From Asterias amurensis (lineage: Eukaryota > Echinodermata > Asteroidea > Forcipulatida > Asteriidae): a stretch of DNA of 64,000 bases. The position numbers and the translations under genes are program-made. A model generated the notes under the pieces. That model was not told the DNA's origin. It was given only the letters and a program-made list of their open reading frames with translations, and searched no databases. The stretch spans positions 12,565,501 to 12,629,500 of the forward strand of contig NC_092668.1 in NCBI RefSeq assembly GCF_032118995.1, read 5' to 3'. Of this stretch, positions 6,658 through 56,850 are shown piece by piece. How positions within the stretch are numbered: the stretch's first letter is position 1; each line of letters opens with the position of its first letter.

Positions 6658-34734
<28,077 letters not shown>

Positions 34735-37008: not shown

Positions 37009-37767
37009 TTAGCAAACGCAAATAGCATTGCATTTTTATCAAATTTTGCCCCCAAAATATACTAGAAACCTTGTGTACCCAATTTTGCCTGAAAATGTGT
37101 ACTTTTTCAGTTTTGCCTGAAAAAGTGTGCAAACATTCCAAACATTAAATTCCATATCGATAAATTTTATTTGCATTTTGTTTGTATTTTAAAAGTTGAC
37201 CATCCCCAAAAGTATTTAGTCTTTAGCTCCTAGCCTATGAACAATGATATTCAAATATGAATATTCATGAGCAGTGAATATCAAAGTAGTCACGGGGGGT
37301 GGCTTGCGGGTTTTAATTAGACTGGTCCGCTGTCTTTATCATACACGAGTGTGCTAATGTGACGTCAGGTGCTGAGGCCAAATTGATCGCGGGAGATTCT
37401 ACAATCCGCCAACAGAGGACGCGATTCCTATTTTAATACCTAGTCAGATACCCTAAACCAAATTCAACGCTGAATTATCGGATGAAGTCCAGCTTGATAA
37501 ATCACGCGCGGCCTATTCAGAAACGCATGCTGGATTAGAATTTCTCAAAAACATGGACGGAGAGGAGTCATTTGCTTCTTCAAGAGAATTTTGCCCGCAA
37601 TTTGGCTCCATTTTACCGTTTCCTGAAAAAGGAACGGTAGTTATGAAATGCAAGACGTGTCCTCACAAAGTAAATGCAAAAAGTAAGTTTAGAATTAATG
37701 TATTTCTTGTGGAAACCAGAGCTTGTAAAGTTGTGTGCGATGGGCCCCTGGACTTGTGCGTTTATAA

Positions 37768-37805
37768 AATGGGTAGGCGGGGGGGGGGGAGGGGGGGGGG
37801 GGGTG
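37768..37805. repeat. Poly-G run
   Basis: Two long G tracts separated by a single A, inside POLR1H intron 1. Homopolymers of this kind are often mis-sequenced. Confidence 0.9.
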
Positions 37806-38033
37806 AGGCTGATGCATGATCGCAACATACTTTGAATATAATATTGAATACATTAATGCAAATTCAGCTCAATGACTTTGAATCTGATGATGTAAATGAC
37901 AAGTGACTGATAATTTGTATTTTACAAAAAAAGTTGAATATTTTTTTTAGTATAAAAAAATATTTATAAACAAAATAGTAGACGTAGTTTTCAATATTAA
38001 TTTTGTAATTTACATCATAATCGGCCTACTAAC

Positions 38034-38165
38034 GGATAACTTTCCGTATGGCGCCACCACTTTTTCACTCATTTTTACAAAAAGGGATATATCAATCAGG
38101 TAAATTAGATACTATATTATTTTATTTCGAATAAAAAAGTGGTGGCGCCATACGGAAACTTTTCC
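38034..38165. mobile_element. MITE-C, palindromic, 132 bp
   Basis: Ends 'ggataactttccgtatggcg' and the inverted 'cgccatacggaaacttttcc'. Related copies are at 56371-56502 and 39018-39120. Confidence 0.8.
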
Positions 38166-38351
38166 TTACTAACTACTAGGCCTGCCTGTAAGATAAATGA
38201 TTGCCTTTTATATCATCCTTTGTAATGATTGCATCCCGGTGGCTCATCCGCTGTTTAGTCATGTTATAATTTATAAAAATATATATACAAAATAAATAAA
38301 ATTATATTTTTTAATTGTGGTAAAACAAACTAAAAGAAATACTCTTGGTAC

Positions 38352-39007
38352 GGTCCTACTAAAAGCCGACAACAAGCCGACAACGCCGACAACAAGTCCA
38401 GAGCGCCGCCAACACGCCGCCAACACGTTTTAAATACCTCAAAAATGGCAAATAAACCATATACATTTTAGAACTATATGTGTTCTGTAATATAAACATA
38501 AAGTTAATGAAAAAACTTCACAAAAAGTGTGAATTTTTAACCAGAAAAAAAATTCACTTGCACGGAAAGCGGTCGGACGCCATCTTGGCTTAAAAACCGT
38601 GTTTGGACCAGACCATTATGATACGGGTAGATTTAGCACTTGTCAACAACAGAGGGCGGGCTTCATGTGAAGACCTTCACTGCAGTGTGCACAGTGCATG
38701 ACGCCCGCCCTCTATTGCTAAGTCTGACTCACCCGCATCATAATGGACTGGTCCAAACACGATTTTAAGCCAAGATGGCGTCCGACCGTTCTCCGTGAAC
38801 GTTAAGTTTTTTTTCTGGTTAAAAATTCACACTTTTCGTGAAGTTTTTCCATTAAATTTATGTTTATACTACAAAACACACATAGTTCTAAAATGTATAT
38901 GGTTTATTTGCCATTTTTGAGGTATTTAAAACTTGTTGGCGGCGTGTTGGCGGCGCTCTGGACTTGTTGTCGGCGTTGTCGGCTTGTTGTCGGCTTTTAG
39001 TAGGACC
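38352..39007. mobile_element. 656-bp fully palindromic foldback transposon, 10-bp target duplication
   Basis: Ends 'ggtcctactaaaagccgaca' and the inverted 'tgtcggcttttagtaggacc'. The arms of about 300 bp pair over most of the length, with tandem GCCGACAAC-type subterminal motifs. The direct repeat ctcttggtac (38342-38351 and 39008-39017) flanks it exactly. A 9-10-bp duplication with long inverted repeats suits a Mutator-like (MULE) non-autonomous element. No coding capacity. It sits in POLR1H intron 1. Confidence 0.85.
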
Positions 39008-39017
39008 CTCTTGGTAC

Positions 39018-39120
39018 AACCACTTTTTCATTCGATGTGAAATATTAATTTACTTCAATGAGATATCCCTTTGTTTGTAAAAATGAGTGAAAAAGTGATG
39101 GCTATACGGAAAGTTATCCC
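39018..39120 (-). mobile_element. MITE-C copy broken by the foldback element
   Basis: Reverse orientation copy ('gggataactttccgtatagc' on the minus strand). The far end of this MITE lies on the other side of the 656-bp palindrome, near 38325-38351, so the palindrome is the younger insertion. Confidence 0.6.
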
Positions 39121-40099
39121 CATTGACTGTCTGACTTACTTTTTTTGGAAATGAATGTTTCAGATTTTCAAATCTTATGATGAGGCATGGTGGTCTGTGC
39201 TGTGCAACGTGCCGGTACCATGCACTCATGATTTCAAAATCGACCAACACAAGTTAAAATAACCTTCCTTTCATTCACAGATTTTCAACAAAACACTTGT
39301 GTAAATTTGTGTTTATTAATATTATCAGCGAATTTTTTTTATCTTTGTATCACTCAGTGGTGACCGCATATATCACTATCCTTAGCACAGACGGCATATT
39401 TTTGAATGAATGAAAGTTCACTTTTTGTCTTCCTTCACATTACAGCTGCATTACATGGTGTGGTCTATCATTCTTACCTGTGTCTCAACTCTCGCAAGAA
39501 TGTTAAAGGTCGTTACAAGGTTACAGCCAGAAAGACCTAGGACCACTGGTGAGTGAAACACTGGAGTTTTAGGCCAAGTTAAAAAAAAAAAACATGTTTT
39601 AAGCATCCCCGCCAGCTTCCTTTTTACATGCCGCCTCCTTTTTAATTTTTTACCTTTTATTAATATATTTTTTTATTCACATAAAAAAAAAAAATTACGC
39701 ACATTTTTTTTAAAGGGTATTTTTAAATGTTCTCAGCTAAAACAATCTGAATGTCTTGACCAATACGTTTCATTTATGTATTGTGTGTTTGAGCAGTAGA
39801 AAAAACAATGGATATTTGACATTTTAAAAAGAATGGTGGCCATCTTCAAATAAAAAATAAAAAGCCCCTCCTCCCCTTTTTTTGAGAAACCCGGATGCTA
39901 TACATGTTTCTTTTTTTACTCTGCCTTATCTTAGAAAATGTCCAATTTGTTCAGGTTTATATCTTGATGTTTACGTACAGAAATGTTCGTACTTTATGTT
40001 GTTTATTTGTCTATACTACAACCACCAAAACATTTTGTTTGTATTTGTTTCTTTCAGAGGTTTCATTATTTATATTTAACTGTGAATTAATTTAAAAAA

Positions 40100-41120
40100 A
40101 GATGTACAAATAAAATCTGTGAAAAGGGTTCACTACCCACAGCGAAACCTCTGGCAATTTCTAAAATTGGTTTATGAAAAAGATGCACAATAGATGAAAT
40201 TTATTCAGTGATTTATTTCATATGGTTTCTTTTGAGAAACATTTAGGTTTACCGTTTTATTTTATTTCAGGAAAGAAACAAAAACAAATCAGTGAAAGTG
40301 TTTGCTGCCTGTAGGGGAACCTCTGGTCAATATTATGATATTGTTTGAAAGATAAATGCGCAATTTTTGTTTGAATATAAGGTGGTTTATCATTTCGCCA
40401 TTTTGAAAAAAAAGCACCCCCAAATTTCTTTGTTTGTACTTGTTATTTTATTTCAGAGTTTTTTCCCCTCTGAAAAAAAGCAAAAATCAGGGATAAAGGT
40501 TTGCCAACTGTAGGGAAAGCTCTGGCCAATGTTTTAACTGCGTTTAATTGAAAAATGTACCAGCACTTCATTTTAACTGGCAATTTATTATATTATATGG
40601 TAATTTTTGATAATTACCCTCCCCCTCCCCAAATATTTGGCTAGAAATAGTTTTGTTTTATTTCAAAGATTTTATATTTAACACTGAAGAGCAAACTTCA
40701 GTGATATGGGTTCGCCACCCATAGGGAAACCTCTGGCCAATTTTTTAACTGTTAATTGAAAATTTTGCCACTTCATATTTATTAGGTGATTTATCATTTG
40801 GTAAGTTTTGAAAAACAAGCCCCCAAATATTTGGTTTTGTATTTTTAACTCTGAACACAGGAGAGCAAAAATTCAGTGACAAAGGGTTCGCCACCCGTAA
40901 GGAAACCCCTGGCCAATTTTTTAACTGTGTTTGATTGAAAATTGCGCCACTTCAAATAAAAAATTGATATTTGGTAAATTTTAAAAAATATCAAAAGCCC
41001 CTAAATATTTATATATACGAATGGGTTCTCTTTCATTTCAGAGGTTTTATATTTTACCTCGGTGATATTGTAAAATCGTTGACAAAGGGTTCGCCACCCG
41101 TAAGGAAACCCCTGGCCAAT
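40100..41120 (+). repeat. Older tandem repeat, about 190-bp unit, six diverged copies
   Basis: A core of the type 'gggttcgccacccgtaagga' recurs near 40120, 40300, 40498, 40708, 40886 and 41087, with 'aacccctggccaatttttt' after it. Copies become more alike from left to right. It lies in intron 2 of the POLR1H-like gene. Confidence 0.85.
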
Positions 41121-41502
41121 TTTTTTTGAAATGTTTGGGAAAAAGCAAATGTTATTTGTTGACGTATCGAAATCTTTACCTCGAATGGATTCATCACTAC
41201 TGTGACAGTGTTGTGCTTCTTTCTGTTTTCTCAGCAAGTAGAACCAGTAGACCTATTTTGTTGAAACTTTCACAGTTTTATTTCATCTTAGGCGCTTTAT
41301 CACAAATTTGTTTTTTCAGTGCTTGGTTATTTTTCACCACTTCCTAAATTTCATTTTTGTATCTGGTCGTGTTTCAGATTGACAGGGCATGTGCCAAGTG
41401 CGGTCACGATGGACTTCATTTCCACACCAGGCAAACCCGATCAGCTGATGAAGGACAAACTGCTTCTATTTCTGCCCATCATGCAAGTAAGTTAAGGACT
41501 AC

Positions 41503-41666
41503 TTAAGCCTGGTTCATTCTTCCTGCAAATGCACAGTGAATTTTGGCGACACAGCCCCGATTTCTTAGGGAATGTTTTGAAGGGGTTGTGACACAGTTCA
41601 ACTGTTGCGAGTTAGTGACAACAAAATTTGCTTCACATTCGCAGGAAGTATGAACCGGGCTTTAGG
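41503..41666. mobile_element. Palindromic MITE, about 164 bp (POLR1H intron 3)
   Basis: Ends 'aagcctggttcattcttcct' and inverted 'aggaagtatgaaccgggctt'; related to 8795-9012 and to a fragment near 34500-34570. Confidence 0.7.
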
Positions 41667-41704
41667 CTTGTAGACCCTTTTAGGTTTATCATACAGTTTC
41701 CATA

Positions 41705-41905
41705 GATTGCACAGGGGTTAGTAGGTACCTGTGAGGGCAGAGATGGTTCTTGAGATTTTTTTAGCTTGGCTGCACAGGCAGTTTATTCCCAAGGGAGCTG
41801 AGTTGGTTTGATGAATGAAATAAATGGCCTAGTGACTAGGGGTAACATTGTTGAAGAGCAACGACTGTCACTGAATTACGGATTTCAGTGCTATATGAGA
41901 ATTAG
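41705..41905 (+). mobile_element. SINE body/tail fragment (POLR1H intron 3)
   Basis: Same block as in 31255-31475 ('gtacctgtgagggcagagat', 'aaatggcctagtgac'). Confidence 0.6.
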
Positions 41906-42017
41906 TACAAGCAGAAATTCACTGTTTACATGACATGTGTAGAAAGCACAATATGGTTACAAGTGCAGCAATCAGCAAAACAGAAACAAACAAAACATGC
42001 AATTGGATCTTTAAGGA

Positions 42018-42164
42018 TCTGCGGTGGATTTCACAAAGAGTTAAGACTAGTCTTATCTCAAGTTACTCGTCTAACTTGGGATTGTTAGCCTTAAGTTTTA
42101 AATATCTCCTGGGACTAGTCCTAACATAGGACCTGTTCTAACTCTTTGTGAAATCGACCCCAGG
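42018..42164. mobile_element. Palindromic MITE, about 147 bp (POLR1H intron 3)
   Basis: Ends 'tggatttcacaaagagttaa' and inverted 'taactctttgtgaaatcgac'. Its right end was captured in every unit of the 590-bp array that follows. Confidence 0.7.
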
Positions 42165-45100
42165 ATGGTTAGGTTCAAAGGTTCATTTTTTATGTAAAAG
42201 TAATTTGTGATTTGTTTTTTTGATTTACAGGCATCAAGAGATTGAGTACTCCTGAAGAGAATCAACATCATCGGATCTGTCTACACTGAGAGGAACTCAA
42301 GGCAAGAGCTCACTGGAACAAGGAGATGAAATCAACACCGACGATGACGACGAAAATGGCGACCTGATGCCAGAGAGATGTCTTACTGATGAGGAGGCTG
42401 ATTTTTGACTGTGCTTATTCATTGAAAATTGCGCCACTTCATATAAGGTAATTTATAAGTTTTGAAAAACAAGCCCCGAAATATTTGGTTTAATATTTTT
42501 AACTCTAAAAAACAGAAGAGCAAAAATTCAGTGACAAAGGGTTCGCCACCCGTAAGGAAACCCCTGGCCGATTTTTTTTACATGTTTAGGAAAAAGCAAA
42601 CGTAATTTGTTGTACCGAAATCTTTACCTCGGATGGATTCATCTCTACTGTGACAGGGTTTGCTTCTTTCTATTTTCTCAGCAAGTAGAACCAGTTAACC
42701 TTTTTTGCTGAAACTTTCAACGTATTCATCTTTCTAACTCTTTGTGAAATCAACCCCAGGATGGTTAGGTTCAAAGGTTCATTTTTTATGTAAAAGTAAT
42801 TTTATATTAATTTATTGTTGGATTTACAGGCATCCAAAGATTGAGTACTCCAGAAGAGAATCAACATCTTCGGATCTGTCTACACTGAGAGGAACTCAAG
42901 GCAAGAGCTCACTGGAACAAGGAGATGAAATCAACACAGCAACGACGACGACGACGACAACCTGATGCCAGAGAGATGTCTTACTGATGAGGAGGCTGAT
43001 TTTTGACTTTGCTTATTCATTGAAAATTGCGCCACCTCATATAAGGTAATTTATAAGTTTTGAAAAACAAGCCCCGAAATAGTTGGTTTAATATTTTTAA
43101 CTCTGAAAACAGAAGAGCAAAAATTCAGTGACAAAGGGCTCGCCACCCGTAAGGAAACCCCTGGCCGATTTTTTTTACATGTTTGGGAAAAAAGCAAAGG
43201 TAATTTGTTGTATGGAAATCTTTACCTCGGATGGATTCATCGCTACTGTGACAGGGTTTGCTTCTTTCTGTTTTCTCAGCAAGTAGAACCAATTAACCTT
43301 TTTTGCTGAAACTTTCAACGTATTCATCTAACTCTTTGTGAAATCAACCCCAGGATGGTTAGGTTCAAAGGTTCATTTTTTATGTAAAAGTAATTTTATA
43401 TTAATTTATTTTTGGATTTACAGGCATCCAAAGATTGAGTACTCCTGAAGAGAATCAACATCTTTGGATCTGTCTACACTGAGAGGAACTCGAGGCAAGA
43501 GCTCACTGGGACAAGGAGATGAAATCAACACCGACGATGACGACGACGACGATGACAACAACGACGACCTGATGGCAGAGAGATGTCTTACTGATGAGGA
43601 GGCCGATTTTTGACTGCTTATTCATTGAAAATTGCGCCACTTCATACAAGGTAATTTATAAGTTTTGAAAAACAAGCCCCCAAATATTTGGTTTAAATTT
43701 TTTAACTCTAAAAAAAAAGGGTTCGCCACCTGTAAGGAAACCCCTGGCCGATTGTTTTTTACATGTCTGGGAAAAAAACAAACTTAAATTTGTTGTATCG
43801 AAATCTTTACTTCGGATGGATTCATCGCTACTGTGACAGGGTTTGCTTCTTTCTGTTTTCTCAGCAAGTAGAACCAATTAACCTTTTTTGCTGAAACTTA
43901 AACGTATTCATCTTTCTAACTCTTTGTGAAATCGACCCCAGGATGGTAAGGTTCAAAGGTTCATTTTTTATGTAAAAGTAATTTTATATTTATTTATTTT
44001 TGGATTTACAGGCATCCAAAGATTGAGTACTCCTGAAGAGAATCAACATCTTCGGATCTGTCTACACTGAGAGGAACTCAAGACAAGAGCTCACTGGAAC
44101 AAGGAGATGAAATCAACACCGACGATGACGACGACAACGGCGACCTGATGGCAGAGAGATGTCTTACTGATGAGGAGGCTGATTTTTGACTGTTTATTCA
44201 TTGAAAGTTGCGCCACTTCATATAAGGTAATTTATAAGTTTTGAAAAACAAGCCCCCAAATATTTGGTTTAATTTTTTTAACTCTGAAAACAGAAGAGCA
44301 AAAATTCAGTGACAAAGGGCTCGCCACCCGTAAGGAAACCCCTGGCCGATTTTTTTTTACATGTTTGGGAAAAAACAAACAAAAATTTTTTGTATCGAAA
44401 TCTTTACTTCAGATGGATTCATAGCTATTGTGACAGGGTTTGCTTCTTTCTGTTTTCTCAGCAAGTAGAACCAATTAACCTTTTTTGCTGAAACTTTATC
44501 TTTCTAACTCTTTGTGCAATCGACCCCAGGGAGGTTAGGTTCAAAGGTTCAATTTTTATGTAAAAGTAATTTTGTATTTATTTATTTTTGGATTTACAGG
44601 CATCCAAAGATTGAGTACTCCTGAAGAGAATCAACATCTTCGGATCTGTCTACACTGAGAGGAACTCAAGACAAGAGCTCACTGGAACAAGGAGATGAAA
44701 TCAACACCGACGATGACGACGACGACGACCTTGACGACCTGATGCCAGAGAAATGTCTTACTGATGAGGAGGCTGATTTTTGACTGTGTTTATTCATTGA
44801 AAGTTGCGCCACTTCATATAAGGTAATTTATAAGTTTTGAAAAACAAGCCCCCAAATATTTGGTTTAATTTTTTTAACTCTGAAAACAGAAGAGCAAAAA
44901 TTCAGTGACAAAGGGTTCGCCACCCGTAAGGAAACCCCTGGCCGATTTTTTTTTACATGTTTGGGAAAAAACAAACAAAAATTTGTTGTATCGAAATCTT
45001 TACTTCAGATGGATTCATAGCTATTGTGACAGGGTTTGCTTCTTTCTGTTTTCTCAGCAAGTAGAACCAATTAACCTTTTTTGCTGAAACTTTATCTTTC

Positions 45101-47150
45101 TAACTCTTTGTGCAATCGACCCCAGGGAGGTTAGGTTCAAAGGTTCAATTTTTATGTAAAAGTAATTTTGTATTTATTTATTTTTGGATTTACAGGCATC
45201 CAAAGATTGAGTACTCCTGAAGAGAATCAACATCTTCGGATCTGTCTACACTGAGAGGAACTCAAGACAAGAGCTCACTGGAACAAGGAGATGAAATCAA
45301 CACCGACGATGACGACGACAACGGCGACCTGATGGCAGAGAGATGTCTTACTGATGAGGAGGCTGATTTTTGACTGTTTATTCATTGAAAGTCGCGCCAC
45401 TTTATATAAGGTAATTTATAAGTTTTGAAAAACAAGCCCCCAAATATTTGGTTTAATTTTTTTAACTCTGAAAACAGAAGAGCAAAAATTCAGTGACAAA
45501 GGGTTCGCCACCCGTAAGGAAACCCCTGGCCGATTTTTTTTTACATGTTTGGGAAAAAACAAACAAAAATTTGTTGTATCGAAATCTTTACTTCAGATGG
45601 ATTCATAGCTATTGTGACAGGGTTTGCTTCTTTCTGTTTTCTCAGCAAGTAGAACCAATTAACCTTTTTTGCTGAAACTTTATCTTTCTAACTCTTTGTG
45701 CAATCGACCCCAGGGAGGTTAGGTTCAAAGGTTCAATTTTTATGTAAAAGTAATTTTGTATTTATTTATTTTTGGATTTACAGGCATCCAAAGATTGAGT
45801 ACTCCTGAAGAGAATCAACATCTTCGGATCTGTCTACACTGAGAGGAACTCAAGACAAGAGCTCACTGGAACAAGGAGATGAAATCAACACCGACGATGA
45901 CGACGACAACGGCGACCTGATGCCAGAGAGATGTCTTACTGATGAGGAGGCTGATTTTTGACTGTGCTTATTCATTGAAAATTGTGGCACTTCTTAAAAG
46001 GTAATTTATAAGTTTTGAAAAACGAGCCCGCATTATTTGGTTTAATATTTTTAACTCTGAAAACAGAAGAGCAAAAATTCAGTGACAAAGGGTTCGCCAC
46101 CCGTAAGGAAACCCCTGGTCGATTTTTTTGTACATGTTTGGGGAAAAAAGCAAACGTAATTTGTTGTATCGAAATCTTTACCTCGGATGGATTCATCGCT
46201 ACTGTGACAGGGTTTGCCTCTTTCTGTTTTCTCAGCAAGTAGAACCAAATAACCTTTTTTTGCTGAAACTTTCAACGTATTCATCTTTCTATCTTTTTGT
46301 GAAATCGACCTCAGGATGGTTAGGTTCAAAGGTTCATTTGTTATGTAAAAGTAATTTTATATTTATTTATTTTTGGATTTACAGGCATCAAAAGATTGAG
46401 TACTCCTGAAGAGAATCAACATCTTCGGATCTGTCTTACACTGAGAGGAACTCAAGGCAAGAGCTCACTGGAACAAGGAGATGAAATCAACACCGACGAT
46501 GACGACGACGACGACGACATTGACGACCTGATGCCAGAGAAATGTCTTACTGATGAGGAGGCTGATTTTTGACTGTGTTTATTCATTGAAAGTTGCGCCA
46601 CTTCATATAAGGTAATTTATAAGTTTTGAAAAACAAGCCCCCAAATATTTGGTTTAATTTTTTTAACTCTGAAAACAGAAGAGCAAAAATTCAGTGACAA
46701 AGGGTTCGCCACCCGTAAGGAAACCCCTGGCCGATTTTTTTTTTACATGTTTGGGAAAAAAAGCAAAGGTAATTTGTTGTATCGAAATTTTTACTTCGGA
46801 TGGATTCATCGCTACTGTGACAGGGTTTGCTTCTTTCTGTTTTCTCAGCAAGTAGAACCAATTAACCTTTTTTGCTGAAACCTTTAACGTATTCATCTTT
46901 CTAACTCTTTGTGAAATCGACCCCAGGATGGTTAGGTTCAAAGGTTCATTTTTTATGTAAAAGTAATATTTTTTATTATTTTTCTTTTTTTGGATTTACA
47001 GGCATCAAGACAGTTAATACTCCTGAAGAGAATCAACATCTTTGGATCTGTCTACACTGAGAGGAACTCAAGGCAAGAGCTCGTTGGAACAAGGAGATGA
47101 AATCACCACCGACGACAACCACCACCTGATGCCAGAGAGATGTCTTACCA
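42135..47150 (+). repeat. Tandem array, about 590-bp unit, nine copies of the last POLR1H exon
   Basis: Copies of the acceptor plus terminal exon begin near 42231, 42830, 43424, 44012, 44600, 45196, 45784, 46385 and 47002 (spacing 588-617). Each unit joins a piece like 40800-41275 (upstream of exon 3) to a piece like 42135-42410 (exon 4 and downstream), so exon 3 is left out. Middle units are nearly identical; the last is shorter and more diverged. Each unit holds an acceptor 'ttggatttacaggcatc', HPKIEYS-stop coding bases and a GAC/GAT run of variable length. Confidence 0.92.
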
Positions 47151-47726
47151 TCCCAGTATGGGTACTTAAATAAGATAAGGATCCTTTATCACTGACAGTG
47201 CCATCAAGATTGTCTCTAGAAACTAAATGACAGCAAAATTTATTCTGATTCCTTTTTTCAAGCGGGTCTCGATCGATACACGGGAACCAGACAAAATGGC
47301 CGAACTGTGGTAAAGGTGTTTTAAACTGTCAGTGTTGCTTACATTAGTTTGTGTTATACAACACCCGAGCAGATCCTTGCCATTTGATTTGAGGATTGAG
47401 CGCCGTGTGTTGGCAAATAAAATTACTATTGCATGCTAAAGTCACTCACCGTGCATTTTTCGTTCCATCCGAAAAGTACAATTGCCAGCTGAGCAAAAAA
47501 AATCTCCGCGTGTACGTGTCTTTGGTAACACAGCAGTGTTACTGCAAGGCACATTACTAGCGATTTGCTTCTGCGTATCCCAAAATAGCTGTACAGAACA
47601 CACATTGTTAAACAGGCCGACCCAAAAGAAACGGTTGTAATTTCACAATTAGAAATTGTACGCCTACGCTTTGTTTGTTATGAAAATTGTATCTTCCAAT
47701 CAAAACGACAAAGATCTACTTGAATG

Positions 47727-47890
47727 TTATATAAAACAAATAATGAATGTTTTTCATTCGTGCAAGGGTGCAAAATGTTCATTCATTAAAAGATGGAATG
47801 TTCCATTCAACTTGGCTCTGCTTCGTTGAATAGAACATTCCATCTTTCAACTCATGAACGTATTCGCACCATTCATTATTTGTTTAAAAC
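47727..47890. repeat. Palindromic element
   Basis: Arms 'aaagatggaatgttccattc' and 'gaatagaacattccatcttt', with outer 'aataatgaatg' / 'cattcattatt'. About 160 bp; could be a MITE. Confidence 0.7.
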
Positions 47891-48053
47891 GAGTATCTAA
47901 AACTTAGTTTCAAAAAAGAGTATCTAAAATTTCATTTTTTACCTTCATGAATTGTTGTTATTGATTGGTCCTCCCCTTACCCCTGGGGTGGGTTGATTGA
48001 TTGATTTTAAGAGCGAGCGAGGCATAACACTTCTGTATTTTACATAAATTGTC

Positions 48054-48419
48054 TTAAAGGCAGTGGACACTGTTGGTAATTACTCAAAATAATTATTGTC
48101 ATAGAACCTTTCTTTGTAACGAGTTATGAGGAGAGGTTGATAGTATAAAACATTTTGAGAAACAGCCCTCTCTGGAGTGACTTGGTTTTCGAGAAGTAAT
48201 TCCCCACAAATTTGATTTTGAGACCTCAGATTTAGAATTTGAGGTCTCAAAATCCAGCATCTGGAAGCACACAATTTTGTGTGACCATGGTGCGACAAGG
48301 ATTTTGACGGTCGATTAAGCTCAAATTTTCACAGGTTTGTTATTTTATGTATATGTTGAGAAACATCAACTGTGAAGACAAGTCTTTGACAGATACCAAT
48401 ACTGTCCAGTGTCTTTAAT
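48054..48419 (+). mobile_element. MITE-A, nearly full-length
   Basis: Termini 'cttaaaggcagtggacactg' and 'accaatactgtccagtgtct'; a few internal deletions. Confidence 0.75.
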
Positions 48420-48798
48420 ACATTTTATCAAGACATTCCCACGAAATGAGTTCACAATACTTCGTACAAAATGCATTAATTTTGACTTTACTTTCCTAAA
48501 TGCAGAATTTTAATTTTTTTTTTTTTTTCAAAACTCTCTTGGCAATTTTTTTTTCCCCTACTACTTTAAAAACTTTGCGCGCTTTAAAAACTCTTCTTTT
48601 CTAGATTTTTCCAACTTGGGAATCTTAGGAAAACACAAATTTCTGTAAAATTTGCTTGTGACTCAGATTGTGGGAATGCCTCTGGTTCTATATTGATACT
48701 TTGATGATTGTGAAGCCAAGTACAACATGCACTCAAGAACTAATGCAAGCGGAACACATCCTAAAGTTGTGTTCTTGGGACCAATCTTCATGACATAC

Positions 48799-48980
48799 AA
48801 GTATGTCATCATTTTAACTAAATTTATTCCTTTTTGGCACGGCATGTTTGGATAAGTGTGATGCACACCTGTCCAAACTCAAAATGAAATACGAGTACGT
48901 CATCAAGTTAACCAAATGTATTCATTTTAGGCATGATGTGTTTGGATAAGTGTGATGCACACCTGTCCAAACTCAAAATA
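48799..48980 (+). repeat. Tandem duplication, about 94 bp
   Basis: 'ttggataagtgtgatgcaca' followed by 'cctgtccaaactcaaaat' occurs twice in a row. Confidence 0.8.
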
Positions 48981-49267
48981 AAATTAATTAAAATGTGCAA
49001 TATATTTTACAAAACAGTCACAAACTTCATTTGAACATGTTTTTTCTTCTTCTTTACATTGCTGCGACAGTAATAATAAACAGTTCTAAATTTTATTGAA
49101 TTTTTTTTTGCATCAGCTGATACAAAAAAAAAAATCTAATTTCAGAGATATTAACTTTTTTTTCAACTCAAGGATAGTAAATGTTGTACTTGGCTTTTTT
49201 ACTTGGCTTTTTTATACTTTGAAAAATTATGTTGTAAAATAATTGGTTACCATTCATTAAATGCTGT

Positions 49268-52200
49268 AGAAAGCACCACTGAACTGTAGAAGCAGCAGAG
49301 TTGTGCAAACGTGTGTGCCTGTCGGTGTGGCCAACTACTATCTGGAAAGTGTGACGACCTAATGATCCAAGAGTTAATGGTTGGGTAAGCATTTTATTAA
49401 GTGAAATCTTGTTAATGTGGCGCTGGTGGTCTGTCTTACCGGTGTCCTACCTTACATGATTGACAAACTATTTCAACTTTCTCGATCTCCGACAAAAATT
49501 TGAAACCTAAGAAAGAAAGGATTTGGTTGCCTGTTGAAGTCTTTGGGGGCCTGTATCAAAAGTGTCAAGGACTGAGGACCATTGCACTTTTTTGCACATT
49601 TTTTACCTGATCATTTTGTTATCCTAAGTTGGTACCCGTCTCTCTATACTGTTCCTGTGTAAACGGGTCTACTTTTTGAGCAACTTCTCTACACTGGACA
49701 TCCTCTTCTGATCTGAGGGAGCCTCTGAACTTGACGAATGACGGAGACTTCTACCCAGATGTTGGTGCGAGGGTCGGAGAAACAAGATTCTGAACATGGC
49801 TATTCACATTTCAATCAGGTACTCAGGCTTTTACATTGGTTTCACTTGTGTTAAGAAGTTTTGAATGTATCAAAAGGAGATATCAAAGATGACATTGGGA
49901 TTGTGTAGGAAGTTAACAGGGCTCTTTATTGTAGAAGAAGCATGGTCGCTTAGAAAGATGCTGTTGTGCATTAGGTAATTGTGACTGGTTTAATTCTCAG
50001 CCACAGTAGGTTGTATGTACACTCCTTCGTAAGTTAGAGTAGTTGAACTGGTTAACAATATTCAGTCTATGATGTTAACTATTGGTCTATTTCAGTGACC
50101 AATTAACTAGGTTGTTCATTGTAGGTTTTGAGTGGTCAGCTTTATGACAGATTCTACAGTAGGTATATTAACGACAATCAGTAGAGGAAATGATTTACAA
50201 ATGATATTGATCAATAGATATTGCTTTTTTAACAAATATTGCCACTGTGGTGTGCATGATTTGTATACATTTTTCATAAACGTAATTTAGCTGCAGTAGG
50301 TGTTTTCAATCCTTCAGGGTATTAATTATTTATAATTGTGAACAGTTTTTACAACTGGTTAACCTTTTTCCAGCTGAACATGGTGACGACACTCGGGCGG
50401 TTTACAAAATTTGTTTAGCCGCACTGTTGGAATCTTGTTTCTCTGATCAGCACATCATCTAGGTTGAAGTTTTAGTTATTTAGGCTGTTAAAGTGACAAA
50501 GACACTTGGTTGTTAATATTTTGACAGGTTCTGAAAAGAGTAGGCAAGTTTAAGATAAACCTGTAGAACTGTTGGGAACAAATGCAACCTGTGTTTGTTC
50601 TTGTTAAGAACTCTTTGAAACAAAACAAATTTGTGCGATGTCCATCAATGATTTTAGTTTTTTTATGGTAAACATGAGAATGTCTCAACATGTACAACAG
50701 CGCAGTGTACAATAGATCAAACTACATGTAGGTGTTTATTAGCAGTATTAGTGTAGACTTATTCAGTTAAATAACCTCAGAACAAACAGTAATTTGTCAA
50801 ATGGCTAGGTAGATATAGGAAGTCCAGTATTAGTGTAGAACTATTAAATAAATAACTAAATTAGGTAGCTTGATTTTGTTATGAATATTATGCAAAAAAG
50901 ACACAGCAGGAATAGGTATTCTAAATAAGACCTCACTTTGTTACTTTAGTCATGCACTGTTTGCAGAATCACCGGTGTCTTTCTAGATGGAAAATACACC
51001 AAGTTTTCAGCGATTTTTATCGTCACTTAATAAAAAAACCTTAATTTTCGGACATCGACATCAGACTCAGTTTTATGCAAAAACATTGTACTTTATAATT
51101 GGTACAGAATCATTAGTATGCAGTGGTTGGTTTGCAGGTTTACATGTAGTTAATCAGTAGGAGTAGTTGTTGATCCTAGATGTTCAATACTTTATTGGGA
51201 CTTCATCAGCAATTTGTAGTTTGTAGGATTTGAAACTTTGTTGTACTTAGGATCTTATCGTCACTGATAAAACCTTAATTTTCTGACATCGACGTCGGAC
51301 TCATTTTTATGCAAAAACATTGTAATTTAAAATTGGTACGAAAACATTAGCATGCAGTTGTTGGTTTGCAGGTTTACATGAAGTTAATCAGTAGGAGTAG
51401 TTGTTGATCCTAGATGTTCAATACTTTATTCGGACTTCATTAACAATTTGTAGTTCCGTAGGATTTGAAACTTTGTTGTACTCAGGAGTTTAGATTTTGT
51501 TTAGAGATAGATTAGGTTGTTTTTTATTAGGTTTTTTCTCAGTCTAGTTATCCTCCATAAACCCAATGTCATCTACAATATCTCCTGTAACGATACTCAA
51601 TGCAATGAAGATGCAAATTTGATGTTTGTGTACAACCTCACTTTTGACTTTGAAATTTGACTTTGTTTGAACGTGTAATCACACACACTGTTAAAATGTT
51701 GCGATGTTTTAACAAATCCAAAACTTATGATTGATTTGAAACAAAATTTATGAAGAAGTGTAGTACTTCTAATGCAAGTGAAACCAATACATTCCTGAGT
51801 ATGCTGTTAATATTGAAAAGAACATGCGTATTTTAGTTCTGTTTTTTGTGCTTGTCACAAAAATTCACAAAATTGTTCAAGTTCAGCCGCCATGTTGGAA
51901 TCTTGTTTCTCTGATCAGCGCATCATCATCTGGGTTGAAGTCTTCGTTATTCTGATGGTACAGGACTCAATCGGTGACGGAGTGGAAGCATCCTTTTACA
52001 CTTCAACCAAAATTCGAACTTGAAACTTTACTCCAAGAACTTAGCGACGTGTTTGCCCGAACAGGGGGAGACGTCCGATGGTACACTTGATACAGATTCA
52101 TCAAACATTTTAACGGGCAACAGAATCCTTTCCGACTTTTGTTTTGGACTTTGGAAAAAAAAATCTTAAGTTTGTTTTTGGCTTCGGACTTTTAAAAAAC

Positions 52201-52408
52201 AATCTTTTTAGTTTGTCAATCATGTAAGGTAAGACATTGGTAAAACAGACTATCAATGAAACATTAACTTGATTTAACTTAATAATATGCTTTCCTTCCA
52301 TTAATACTTAGATCATTTAGTCGCTTCACTTTCTAAATAGTAGTTGGCCACACCGATCGGCACACACGTTTGCGCAACTCTGCTGCTTCTACAGTTCAGT
52401 GGTGCTTA
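49268..52408. mobile_element. 3.1-kb element with long (about 525-bp) inverted repeats, non-coding
   Basis: Left end 'agaaagcaccactgaactgt'; right end carries the inverse 'acagttcagtggtgctt'. The arms remain alignable inward to about 49795 and 51885 ('ttaccttacatgattgacaa' on the left; its inverse near 52215-52235). No transposase-like ORF and no clear target duplication. Best read as a non-autonomous, old DNA transposon with long terminal inverted repeats. Confidence 0.65.
51013..51489 (+). repeat. Tandem duplication, about 240 bp, inside the long-TIR element
   Basis: 'gtagttgttgatcctagatg' and the surrounding approximately 240 bp occur twice (51013-51251 and 51252-51489) with moderate divergence. 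Confidence 0.85.
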
Positions 52409-52779
52409 AAAAAATCAAAAAAAATCCCTTAAAAAACGCCTTTTTTATATAGACTAAGTCAGCCAAAAAAATTTCTCGTGCCGTTGTACGGTTCGAAATT
52501 AACTGCGTAAAAAGTTTGGCCCTACCCCCCCTATTATTAAAATCATGATCAACCAAGTGCACCCCCTATAGGGGTGCAGAAGAGACTGTATCCCAAAGTA
52601 ATGTACACCAACATGTAATCAAGTAGAAATTTGCATAAGACACTTAATACAAGGCGTCAAATTCAAATTACCATAAGATTATATTGCTAGGTACATCAAA
52701 ATGGAATGCAGCCCCTTATTAAAGGTATCGTCTTATAGCTTGTTGTGACTTTAAATAACAATAAAATGGAGTTCCATTG

Positions 52780-53285
52780 TGGACTTAGTCATTTTTTGAC
52801 CAAAACACTAGCCATTGTTTGTACTTAGTAATTTTTTGAGCAGAAACTCATAGTCAATGTTTGTACTTAGTCTTTTTTTGGACTTAGTCATTTTTTGACA
52901 GAAACACTTAGTAATTATTGACTTTCTGAGTCCTTTTGTGGACTTAGTCATTTTTTGACCAAAAAAACTAGCCATTGTTTGTACTTAGTAATTTTTTGAG
53001 CAGAAACTCATAGTCAATGTTTGTACTTAGTCTTTTTTTGGACTTAGTCATTTTTTGACAGAAACACTTAGTAATTATTGACTTTCTGTGTCCTTTTGTG
53101 GACTTAGTCATTTTTGGACCAAAAACACTAGCCATTGTTTGTACTTAGTAATTTTTTGAGCAGAAACTCATAGTCAATGTTTGTACTTAGTCTTTTTTTG
53201 ACTTAGTAATTTTTTGACAAAAACACTTAGTAATTACTGACTTTCTGTGTCCTTTTGTGGACTTAGTCATTTTTTGACAAACAAA
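52780..53285 (+). repeat. Tandem repeat, about 155-bp unit with internal short repeats
   Basis: 'ggacttagtcattttttgac' recurs at about 52780, 52936 and 53099 and, in a shorter form, near 53258. Between these, 'gtacttagtaattttttgag' gives a second layer of repetition. AT-rich and without coding sense. Confidence 0.85.
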
Positions 53286-53289
53286 ACTT

Positions 53290-55230
53290 TCCAAGATTGA
53301 GATTATAAAGTCACGGAACAAGCTATAAGATGCGGCCTTTACAGAAGATACAACATTGGTAGTTACGCTATTGTAAATTTTGGTAAGCATTCAAGTAAAC
53401 ATTCATCTAATGTCCACATGATGTAAAAACTGTTTTGAGATAAACAATTAACAAAGAAAGTTGTTTTGAAACGCTGCAAGTTTTAGATAATGTTTTTGTG
53501 TCCAAATTTGTGCACTCTTTATGCAGTATATGAATACCAATGTTGTACCTTCTTTATAAGTAAGAAACGCAACCTGTAAACCATAAAGGAGTCAAATTTA
53601 ATTAGATTTGTTTGAAAATAAACAAAAACGCTTCGATTCTTGGAATATTCTGAAAAAGCACAAACAATTATTTTACAAGTTTGTGGAAACCAAATAGTTA
53701 ATTTATGTTTTCATGAGACTAGTTTTTTTTCTAGCCATGTGGACTCCTTTTGGAAAAACAGGTTACATTTCTTCCTTGGTTGATCATTTATATTTCTTAG
53801 CTATGGTTGTCATTTGCCAGCTGATGTTTCTTCTCGGATAAATTCTTAACTGGTTTGGCGGTTTAAGTTTAATTTTGAAACTATACACATTTTCAATTCT
53901 TTTAATAAAGACAAGTATGAATTGAAAGCTGTCTTTGATTTTACAAATACAATTTTTTGAATTGTGGCACTTGACAAGTGCATTAAAAAAAAGACATTTT
54001 TAAATAATTTCAATGAGGTTTAAGTAAATTTACATCAACTGGCACATTTCTAACCATCAATTTAAGCAACTATCAAAATGAATAGTAAGGAAGCAATAGG
54101 AGTGCAAAAGCACCCCAAAACAAAAATTGTTTTAATTAAAACGTTCCGGAAACATAACATACATCTTAGTCATAATCAAGCTCTTGAGGTAGGGGTGGGC
54201 AGGGGTTAATGTCTAACAGTGTGGATGCACTAACTGCTGTTTTTAGGCGCTATACAAATCGAAAGTTATTATTATTATTATTTGTTCAAATAAAGTCTTG
54301 ACAATTCAAATAAACAATCTAGTCTGGTTTGCTTATTATTTTCTGATGAATCATAATATTTGGACAATTATTGGTTCTATGAACGGCTTTGGTGATCCCC
54401 TATTCCCCTTATAGGTGTTGATGAACTAATTAAATGTAACGTTTAGAAAATAAAAAAGATTTGGATACTTTTGGTAATTATCTCATCACTTGGTGTGCCT
54501 CAATAAATGCATAAATAACAAACCAGTTAAAGTTTTGGCTCAAATGGTCATCAAAGTTGAAAACAAAACATGAAAGGAAATCTACATTCCATGCATAAAA
54601 TTGTGTGCTTTCAGATGCATGACAAAGGCTTCATGCCTGAAGCCTTTTTCAGATTAAATTTGTTGAAAAAAATTACCACTTTCCCTAAAACTACATTTTA
54701 CTTTAAAGGGTGTTTTTCCAACAACATTGTTTTAACATCAACATGGTCAGTGCTCTAGCGTTTTCATGATAATTAATTTTTGGAGTAACTACAAAGTACA
54801 CCTATTTAATAGGATGCATTCAAAATTATGAAGCTAATCTTGGGGGGGGGGGTAGAGTTACATATTATTCATGAACAGTAATTCCATGTTTGCAAGTACA
54901 GAAATACAGTGTAATCGTTCCTCAAGGGTAGTTTAGTACTGAATTGACGATGCTTAGCCTGTAATACAGGCATTATGTTTGGCTCTTGAGGTAAAAGTAT
55001 GAACATTTCATCAAGAAGAAGGGCTCACCTAAATGAACGTTTTTAATAGAAATTTAATGGATTGTTCGGAGGCCCCACAAAAAAGAAAAAGTCATAAATA
55101 ATGTGGGTCTTAGGAGAAAAACAAGTACGAGAGAAATTTGGGCAAATGTGTTGGTATAAATTACTTTGGCCTTACAGCTAGTAATAGAAATAAACATTTT
55201 GGTTGCCTTACAGAACGGTTGAGGCTCGTA
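53290..55230. other. AT-rich non-coding stretch
   Basis: I recognise only a SINE/LINE tail (about 54180-54283, ending in ATTATTATT) and an old reverse MITE-A (about 54460-54790). No supported exon. Confidence 0.45.
54460..54790 (-). mobile_element. MITE-A, old reverse copy
   Basis: Recognisable blocks such as 'aaattgtgtgctttcagatg' in family order, but weak termini. Confidence 0.5.
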
Positions 55231-55231
55231 C

Positions 55232-55327
55232 CTCAGTGACTGCTGTTGTGGCTGGAAAGACTGCTGAGATGTAGGGAGAGGCAGCATACACTTCTGATGA
55301 TAGGGAAACATTCAGATTCCACGAACT
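55232..55327 (-). other. Candidate internal exon, minus strand
   Basis: On the complement an acceptor 'gttctttttcag' precedes 96 bases that end at CTGAG|GTACGAG. One frame starts with an ATG (55309-55311) and reads MFPYHQKC...QQSFQPQQQSL. I recognise no protein family. It would follow the candidate first exon at 55842-56130. Confidence 0.35.
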
Positions 55328-55841
55328 CTGAAAAAGAACAAAATTATATTTAGAGTATGGATGTAAATTAGTGTTCATACATAATGAGGAGATATAGAAA
55401 GTATAAGGCATTGGGAAACTTATCTTCAGGGCAGCACGTTCAGGGGGCCTTTAAATTGTCTCAACATATACATGACATGTACAGTACCTCATATACCTCA
55501 CAATTCAAAGAAAAATATGTGCGCCCTGTGAATTTACTTGCATTGAACTTTGAAGGAATTGGAGAAACTTGTAGTGCAAAGTGTTAGAATTCATCAGCAA
55601 AACCGATGTGGGTCAATGTTTCAACAAAAATGTCCGTCCCTAACAATATTTTCCTCACTTGTATTGAGCGAGAATTCAGTGGTTTAATCAATTTTAACAC
55701 AATCTATGTTTCTTCGATTTGTCTTGGGTTATATCATTGACATTTAGCTGACAATAGTTTGACTGTATTGCCCGAGACAATCTTGTCTTAGTTATAACCC
55801 CCTCAAATTTCCTCTTTTGCATCAACACATGAATCACTTAC

Positions 55842-56130
55842 CTAATTAAGAAGATTCTAGGAACATCCGTGCGGTTATCATCGTGGAAGTTGTTAAATTT
55901 TGATGTGTAAAATGCTACAGATGATCTGCTTTTCCTCCACACACACGTCGAGGAAACACACGATGCCCGCGCTCAGAAACAAAATGGCCGCGAGGAGTTA
56001 AGGGGTGCCTCGACCTCGTTCCCAGGGGTGATTGAGATCGCCATCTTTTCCCAGCATGCCTTGCTCGATGTGCATGCGCGTGAACGTAGTACGAACGGCA
56101 TCCTTTTATTGGCCCAAATTTGAAGGAATC
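55842..56130 (-). promoter_or_regulatory. ZNF143/YY1-type promoter and candidate non-coding first exon
   Basis: This GC-richer patch contains 'tcccagcatgccttg', the core of the ZNF143/Staf site, next to 'aagatggcg' on the minus strand and 'caaaatggccgcg' on the plus strand, both YY1-like. A very good minus-strand donor (TTAG|GTAAGTG, exon end 55842) follows. The combination is typical of housekeeping promoters, but no downstream coding gene was found on either strand. Confidence 0.5.
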
Positions 56131-56370
56131 TTAGGGGTGAGGCCAGCATTTTTATTAATTGCCTATTTTTTTTGTTAAGGTGCGATGTTGTGCTCTTCAT
56201 GATGCAGTAGGCTTTTCTGAAGCCTTTTTTATTGAATAGAAGCCAATAATAATATTTCAAGCAATAATTTAAGAAGTTGTTATTTTGTTTTTTACTTGAA
56301 AAGAAAAACAAAACCCACCAAAAATTTAAAAATATAATCTGCCTCCTGCAGATCTTAGCTGCCCCTAAGG

Positions 56371-56519: not shown

Positions 56520-56850
56520 TTTATTCTCCCAAATTATTATTATAGCCTTGTGTAATTGTTCAGTTTTGGTTTAGAAATGTGTACAAGCCTTTAACAATTG
56601 TCTGAAGGCTTTAGCCTTGTGTACTTTTTTGTTGCCTGAAAATGTGTACACGGCCGTGTGTACTTAGCAAATTTTGCCTGAAAATAATTACGAGGCTGTT
56701 GTGTACTAAGCAAATTTAGCCTGAAAATGTGTACCTACAAGGCTTATAATTATAATTATGGACATGTGTACTTTCTGAATTTTGCCTAAAAATCTGACGA
56801 GGCTAAAACCTTGTGTACAAGGCCTTGTGTCAAATTTTGCAATTCCTAAT
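56520..56850 (+). repeat. Short irregular repeat with 'gcctgaaaatgtgtac'
   Basis: The motif and its variants occur about five times here and three times near 37050-37140, usually after 'ccttgtgtac'. Likely one old repeat family. Confidence 0.6.

What the first reader, a model, noticed from the sequence alone, without database searches (positions are those of the whole stretch)
42135..47150. A 590-bp satellite made from the terminal exon of a polymerase I subunit gene
Nine units each carry a splice acceptor and the last coding exon plus downstream sequence of POLR1H. The unit was built by joining DNA upstream of exon 3 to DNA just before exon 4, within the right arm of a MITE, which dropped exon 3. 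Any transcript crossing the locus could in principle splice to nine alternative last exons. Middle units are nearly identical, implying recent amplification or homogenisation; the first and last have drifted.
Basis: seen in the sequence. Interest (0 to 1): 0.75.

Follow-up and report, generated by a model that had tools for sequence, protein, structure and literature searches.

The report
Broken polymerase-gene copies with exon arrays
A sea star genome appears to carry about fifty mostly decayed copies of one RNA polymerase I subunit gene, many with the gene's last exon repeated in a row like a small satellite; this looks like a passive by-product of DNA duplication, while other DNA travelling with the copies is much better preserved than the gene.

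Summary
Nine splice acceptors followed by the last POLR1H codons lie at 42231-47002, 588-617 bp apart; units 2-9 carry the exon-3-dropping join (41289 to 42136, in the right arm of a MITE). The array is not confined to this locus. POLR1H exon hits and the 150 listed unit matches (of 355) form 51 clusters on 11 contigs, 35 with listed units; 99 of 100 listed junction sites and 100 of 100 listed acceptor sites lie within 15 kb of a POLR1H exon hit. The array travels with POLR1H copies. Two contig-15 copies have an intact 122-codon frame and one last exon as far as read. The window copy is broken: one-base losses in exons 2 and 3, and a zinc cysteine changed to phenylalanine (14 of 18 exon-1 copies examined). 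Elsewhere units are mostly ~800 bp; the 590-bp form is a shortened one typical of contig 21. Several arrays are homogenised locally and two show dimeric repeats. Codons are no better conserved than the UTR, so 'nine alternative last exons' has no support. Best reading: a tandem array born in a duplicated, decaying gene and spread inside a larger low-copy repeat. Unexplained: blocks downstream, apparently noncoding, 95-99% identical between copies.

The parts
37388..56301 (+). stretch of the window shared with other duplicon copies (as far as traced; one contig-21 copy shares more on the left, C1 and C19 copies go on to the right)
   Evidence: left limit; homology of four other copies to the window ends at 56289-56301
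37553..37682 (+). POLR1H exon 1 coding part, CPQF instead of CPQC
38352..39007 (+). palindromic insertion in intron 1 (201-nt arms, 97%), absent from copy L039
39446..39548 (+). POLR1H exon 2, 103 nt against 104 in both contig-15 copies (frameshift)
40060..41125 (+). intron-2 minisatellite (~200-bp units, limits by eye), also in the contig-15 copies; source of the unit's 5' half
   Evidence: sequence; repeated hits of feature A1
41080..41289 (+). intron-2 piece that ends at the unit's internal junction
41378..41486 (+). POLR1H exon 3, 109 nt against 110 in a contig-15 copy (frameshift), single copy here
42026..42160 (+). MITE-like palindromic element before the first exon 4; its right arm from 42136 is in the later units
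42231..42401 (+). exon 4, first (ancestral-type) copy
42402..47148 (+). eight exon-3-less tandem units with acceptors at 42830, 43424, 44012, 44600, 45196, 45784, 46385, 47002
47150..48500 (+). 3' tail, partly shared with the single-exon contig-15 genes
47416..47421 (+). first AATAAA after the array; none in units 1-8
   Evidence: weak, because a contig-15 gene has no AATAAA in 3 kb either
49270..49910 (+). unexplained highly conserved block A of the duplicon, apparently noncoding
   Evidence: 49270-49640 is 95-99% identical in the 39 other copies scored; alignment of five copies
51551..52407 (-). conserved block B, an old inverted relative of block A (49271-49470 against 52209-52407, 84.5%)

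Best explanation
An intron-containing copy of POLR1H underwent a tandem duplication of [late intron 2 + exon 3 + intron 3 + exon 4]. In one repeat a microhomology deletion joined intron 2 to the right arm of a MITE and removed exon 3. The resulting ~800-bp exon-4 unit grew into a short array by unequal exchange. The copy, inside a segment of about 19 kb or more, was duplicated to about 49 places outside contig 15, where most gene copies examined have decayed. In the contig-21 branch, exchange between two intron-2 minisatellite repeats shortened most units to ~590 bp. Arrays are then homogenised locally. Shown: shared junction, intermediates, decay of the copies examined, local similarity of units in several arrays, co-occurrence with POLR1H exons. 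Inferred: order of steps, unequal exchange as the engine, how the segment moved between chromosomes. The array itself most likely does nothing.
For: Contig-15 copies have intact exons, 122 codons and one exon 4 in what was read (about 0.7 kb beyond it for one copy, 4.7 kb for the other). Feature maps show one order of parts in the array loci mapped, several only in part and some lacking exon 3, intron 3 or the MITE; L040 and L060 hold two and three tandem exon 3 + exon 4 units before exon-3-less ones. 51 clusters on 11 contigs; all 35 with listed units contain at least one POLR1H exon (150 of 355 unit matches were listed). 99 of 100 listed junctions (the other at 15.1 kb) and 100 of 100 listed acceptors within 15 kb of an exon hit. 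Decay: 7 of 18 exon-1 copies with an in-frame stop, 14 of 18 with Cys to Phe; 8 of 30 exon-3 copies with a frameshift or stop. Exon 1, 16 amplified copies: 11 synonymous and 54 nonsynonymous types of change, expected synonymous share 0.236. Tree of 97 exon-4 stretches: inner units group by locus at C13:3.59, C14:3.02, C14:4.81 and C21:14.09 Mb. Dimeric pattern in five of eight units at C21:14.09 and six of eleven at C21:13.36 Mb: 99-100% two units apart, about 95% next door.
Against: Exon 3 is less clearly neutral: 18 synonymous and 37 nonsynonymous types, expected synonymous share 0.245, and its mean majority share (0.966) exceeds that of the 30 bp before (0.957) and after it (0.927) and of DNA further out (0.916 and less); those 30 are the best of 58 protein hits. 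Exon-1 copies show no indels (0 of 18). The AG of the acceptor is slightly better conserved (0.979) than the rest of the unit. In the tree, units of C21:12.6, 13.36 and 13.65 Mb intermix, and support values were not read. No transcripts or long reads were available. The dispersal route is not shown.
Confidence: 0.8

Rival explanations
1. A free-standing satellite that captured the exon and spread on its own.
For: Tandem arrays, local homogenisation and dimeric repeats resemble satellites; many loci.
Against: Each of the 35 clusters with listed units has a POLR1H exon, and 199 of 200 listed sites lie within 15 kb of one; the unit is built from POLR1H intron, MITE and exon; precursors with exon 3 exist.
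Confidence: 0.06
2. Working alternative last exons: transcripts splice to different units and so vary the 3' UTR.
For: AG intact in 91 of 95 units, the AG columns being slightly better conserved than the rest, and most units still spell the last codons; the splice donor just before the array is intact.
Against: Gene copy frameshifted twice; codons no better conserved than the UTR, pyrimidine tract worse; no AATAAA or ATTAAA in units 1-8, a weak point since a contig-15 gene also lacks both for 3 kb.
Confidence: 0.04
3. The segment of about 19 kb or more is a large non-autonomous mobile element with POLR1H as cargo.
For: Same order of parts at the traced loci; in three loci the left flank starts within a 48-bp satellite (read by eye); blocks outside the gene far better conserved than the gene.
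Against: No terminal repeats with target duplication recognised by eye; borders differ between copies; the satellite is common elsewhere (1301 + 1544 matches with up to 3 mismatches); C1 and C19 copies continue past the window's right border.
Confidence: 0.07
4. Assembly artefact.
For: Near-identical units can be misassembled.
Against: Same architecture with distinct sequence at many loci; if this is the Asterias amurensis assembly it rests on PacBio HiFi reads from a ~15-kb library (passages of PMC10625585), longer than the 5-kb array.
Confidence: 0.02

Closest known systems
Segmental duplications / low-copy repeats carrying gene pseudocopies
   Same: intron-containing copies interspersed on several chromosomes with shared flanks
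   Different: copies on other contigs are only about 70-90% identical to the window in the comparisons made, so older than the usual >=90% cut-off (recalled), and many carry an internal terminal-exon array
D4Z4/DUX4-type macrosatellite (starts of the abstracts of PMC2965761 and PMC3204225 seen in the listing)
   Same: tandem units each with a piece of a gene; sequence beyond the last unit may matter for 3' ends (recalled)
   Different: D4Z4 units hold a gene that can encode a protein; here nine C-terminal codons plus UTR, and no expression evidence
Satellite DNA with higher-order repeats
   Same: head-to-tail units, homogenised centre, drifted edges, dimeric repeats in two arrays
   Different: short arrays (1-11 listed units per cluster), tied to one gene
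POLR1H (RPA12, ZNRD1)
   Same: both zinc ribbons in the contig-15 genes
   Different: window copy has two frameshifts and one lost zinc ligand

Membership tests
POLR1H / RPA12 | two zinc ribbons (RPB9-like and TFIIS-like) in one ~120-aa protein | tested here: met
   contig-15 protein: TFIIS ribbon 1.5e-14; RPB9 ribbon 1.1e-4 with 22.4 bits, below its 25.2 cut-off; RPA12 chain 6e-26 over residues 5-119
POLR1H / RPA12 | intact reading frame in the window copy | tested here: not met
   one-base losses in exons 2 and 3
satellite DNA | head-to-tail tandem units with local homogenisation | tested here: met
satellite DNA | spreads independently of a gene | tested here: not met
   99 of 100 and 100 of 100 listed sites within 15 kb of POLR1H exons (145 and 258 sites in all)
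segmental duplication | intron-containing copies of >1 kb at several chromosomal places | tested here: met
segmental duplication | >=90% identity between copies (recalled criterion) | tested here: inconclusive
   contig-21 copy L039 about 92% over the gene, copies on other contigs about 70-90%
DNA transposon | terminal inverted repeats with target-site duplication | tested here: inconclusive
   none recognised by eye at the borders read; outer borders not resolved
D4Z4-like expressed macrosatellite | transcription from the array | not testable with these tools
   no RNA data

The most novel reading that the evidence does not exclude
The duplicated segment is kept or moved for a reason other than POLR1H: a pair of apparently noncoding blocks (49270-49910 and 51551-52407, old inverted relatives of one another), nearly identical in dozens of copies, is the working part (an unknown noncoding RNA, a regulatory centre, a very short coding gene, or the recognition ends of a mobile element), and the POLR1H arrays are passengers.
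Probability: 0.15. Interest if true: 0.65.

Novelty: new variant of a known kind. Interest (0 to 1): 0.42.

Why it matters
It catches, in one genome, what look like successive stages in which a gene's last exon becomes a satellite: single-exon gene, tandem exon 3 + exon 4 precursors, exon-3-less units, shortened units, dimeric higher-order repeats. With about fifty paralogous loci it allows the birth and homogenisation of tandem arrays to be studied with built-in replication. It also warns that annotation of this genome may list false POLR1H genes, and points to strongly conserved blocks of unknown nature.

Tried and rejected
Rejected: a link to the sex-determining region (chromosome 10 in PMC11757944, abstract and passages; none of the listed hits is on C10, and C numbers were not matched to published chromosome names). 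A known RNA in the array: one tRNA-Leu call at 22248 and an Rfam tRNA at 19363, nothing in the array. A structured RNA in block A: folds no better than shuffles, z +2.15; in 49100-53000 one chance-like Rfam hit at E 0.18 and no other up to E 1. Lack of AATAAA as proof that units cannot be last exons: dropped, because a contig-15 gene also lacks one for 3 kb. A clean right end at 56301: dropped, since C1 and C19 copies continue. Block A as certainly noncoding: dropped; a minus-strand frame of 92 codons (49168-49446) overlaps its start, and 59 codons of it stay open in all 5 copies compared. In print: by title and start of abstract, the searches (20 of 1,309 listed; 4 of 4; 20 of 40; 15 of 773; 15 of 17; 6 of 6) listed no paper on POLR1H copies or arrays in sea stars; beyond listings I saw passages of PMC10625585 and PMC11090083 and the abstract and passages of PMC11757944.
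Full report
Check of the observation. TRF, whose longest period here is 500, does not report the array, but reading and profile search do: nine acceptors of the form ...ATTTACAG|GCATC at 42231, 42830, 43424, 44012, 44600, 45196, 45784, 46385 and 47002. Codons after the acceptor read (K)HQEIEYS-stop in unit 1, (K)HPKIEYS-stop in units 3-7 and (K)HQKIEYS-stop in unit 8; unit 2 has lost the stop and unit 9 has an earlier one (read). Joined from contig 15, the gene gives a 122-codon protein whose best solved relative is an RPA12 chain, 7ob9_I (human by recall), E 6e-26, so the name POLR1H is right. Units 2-9 carry late intron 2 up to 41289 directly followed by DNA from 42136, the right arm of a MITE-like palindrome before exon 4. 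The first exon 4 at 42231 still has the whole MITE and intron 3 in front of it. Inter-acceptor stretches 4-6 are 99.0-99.3% identical, other pairs 93-96%.

Not confined to this locus. The window lies on contig 21 of a 491.5-Mb genome of 23 contigs. Size, 22 chromosomes and a longest chromosome of 38.00 Mb fit the 491.53-Mb HiFi assembly of the sea star Asterias amurensis (passages of PMC10625585); this identity is inferred. One unit finds 355 matches, of which 150 were listed. Protein searches find exon 1 at 53 places, exon 2 at 46 and exon 3 at 58. Grouped within 12 kb, exon hits and listed units make 51 clusters on 11 contigs, 49 of them outside contig 15; all 35 clusters with listed units contain at least one POLR1H exon. 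With up to 3 mismatches the exon-3-dropping junction occurs 145 times and the acceptor-plus-codons 258 times, against 0 and 0 for the patterns read backwards. Of the 100 places listed for each, 99 and 100 lie within 15 kb of a POLR1H exon hit; the remaining one lies at 15.1 kb. So, as far as could be listed, the array goes with POLR1H copies; that the junction arose once and was then copied is an inference from its sameness.

Source and decay. Two copies on contig 15 (0.86 and 1.59 Mb, opposite strands) have both zinc ribbons, intact exons and a single exon 4 in what was read. The window copy has a one-base loss in exon 2 and another in exon 3 and a Phe in place of a zinc Cys in exon 1. That change is seen in 14 of 18 exon-1 copies examined (of 53 hits); 3 keep Cys (both contig-15 copies and C13:3.58 Mb) and 1 has a stop there; 7 of 18 have at least one in-frame stop, and none has an indel. 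In exon 3, 4 of 30 copies have a frameshift and 4 a stop; these 30 are the best of 58 hits, so decay may be understated. In 16 amplified exon-1 copies there are 11 synonymous and 54 nonsynonymous types of change, where a synonymous share of 0.236 is expected without selection. For exon 3 it is 18 and 37, with 0.245 expected, and the exon is slightly better conserved than its flanks (0.966 against 0.957 and 0.927 for the adjoining 30 bp), a hint of constraint or of how the copies were chosen. Taken together most examined copies look like pseudogenes, though some may be expressed.

How the unit was made. Feature maps of the window and ten fetched stretches (two of them the contig-15 genes) show one order: exon 1, exon 2, intron-2 minisatellite, exon 3, intron 3, MITE, exon 4, then [intron-2 piece + MITE arm + exon 4] repeated, then a common tail; several stretches cover only part of this. 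L040 (contig 1) has two and L060 (contig 19) three tandem units that still hold exon 3, followed by units without it; these look like the precursor. L057 and L058 (contig 21) show no exon 3, the latter no intron 3 or MITE either. Intron 2 of the contig-15 copy at 1.59 Mb reads CATCTTTCTA, the window's MITE arm GTTCTAACTC (CCTAACTC in the 0.86-Mb copy) and the unit CATCTTTCTAACTC, consistent with a deletion at a 3- to 5-bp microhomology. Spacing is about 800 bp in most clusters with listed units but about 600 on contig 21, where one of two similar intron-2 repeats has gone; one contig-14 cluster has about 1.16 kb; L039 has 800 and 600 side by side. In a tree of 97 exon-4 stretches, inner units group by locus at C13:3.59, C14:3.02, C14:4.81 and C21:14.09 Mb, while those of C21:12.6, 13.36 and 13.65 Mb intermix; support values were not read. 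The arrays at C21:14.09 (five of eight units) and C21:13.36 Mb (six of eleven) alternate: units two apart are 99-100% identical and neighbours about 95%, a dimeric higher-order repeat. The window's array shows no such alternation.

Does the array act on splicing? Across 95 amplified units the acceptor AG is intact in 91 (mean majority share 0.979), but the coding codons (0.953) are no better conserved than the following UTR (0.954) or the MITE arm (0.954), and the pyrimidine tract is worse (0.842). Units 1-8 have no AATAAA or ATTAAA, the first AATAAA being at 47416 after unit 9. This is weak evidence, since a contig-15 gene has neither within 3 kb. Without RNA data the question stays open, but little points to use.

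The larger segment. Copies share flanks: left to about 165 bp before the start codon in the window and about 1-1.5 kb in copies elsewhere, right to at least 56.3 kb of the window. Some copies go further on both sides. In three loci the left flank starts in a 48-bp satellite (by eye) whose core has 2,845 matches genome-wide with up to 3 mismatches. I recognised no target-site duplication and no convincing ends, so I call it a low-copy repeat and leave the mobile-element reading at low probability.

An unexplained part. Outside the gene, 49270-49640 is 95-99% identical in the 39 other places scored, on 8 contigs with the window's own (112 candidates, 72 not scored). 51500-52230 is 91-100% in 35 full-length places, the window included, and 87-88% in 4, with one more copy split in two (96 candidates, 40 scored). 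The gene part is about 70-90% between contigs in the four comparisons made. In 200-bp tiles, 49.4-49.8 kb is 97-99% for the C13, C14 and C19 copies and 88-94% for contig 15; 52.0-52.8 kb is 91-98% in the seven copies compared. The stretch between is lower for most, but for C19 it too is mostly 86-99%, so the contrast is not equally sharp everywhere. No frame of 90 codons lies wholly inside, but one of 92 codons on the minus strand (49168-49446) overlaps the start of block A, and 59 codons of it are open in all 5 copies compared; coding is therefore not excluded. No Rfam family fits and block A does not fold better than shuffles. The outer 200 bp of the two blocks are inverted copies, 84.5% identical. 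Constraint or gene conversion could explain it; the data here do not decide.

Verdict. It is a new variant of known things (gene-derived tandem array inside a low-copy repeat), instructive rather than revolutionary.

Noticed in passing
window 49270-49910 and 51551-52407: Apparently noncoding blocks, old inverted relatives, nearly identical in dozens of duplicon copies while POLR1H beside them decays; a 59-codon minus-strand frame in block A is open in 5 of 5 copies compared.
   Followed up: partly
window 8183-8335 (+): Exon of the RNA polymerase III largest subunit gene POLR3A (Pfam Rpb1 domain 1, 2.1e-17; RPC1 chain 7a6h_A, 1.3e-23).
   Followed up: partly
window 38352-39007: Palindromic insertion (201-nt arms, 97%) in intron 1 that copy L039 lacks.
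   Followed up: partly
left flanks of copies at C1:5.80, C1:11.01 and C14:4.66 Mb; window 56530-56830: 48-bp satellite around GTGAACTTGTCAAATTTTGCTTGAAAAA, with 2,845 matches genome-wide (up to 3 mismatches) and related-looking repeats right of the duplicon in the window (by eye).
   Followed up: partly
L059, L060, L061 downstream of the array: A second minisatellite of about 93 bp (from the offsets between matches) in the shared 3' flank.
   Followed up: no
window 60549-62390 (-): 613-codon open frame rich in Gln, Ser and Pro; its start resembles the KH region of ANKHD1/ANKRD17 (recalled; Pfam gave no hit).
   Followed up: partly
window 55200-56000 (-): Possible promoter and small exons with splice-like borders on the minus strand, inside the duplicon (read by eye).
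   Followed up: no
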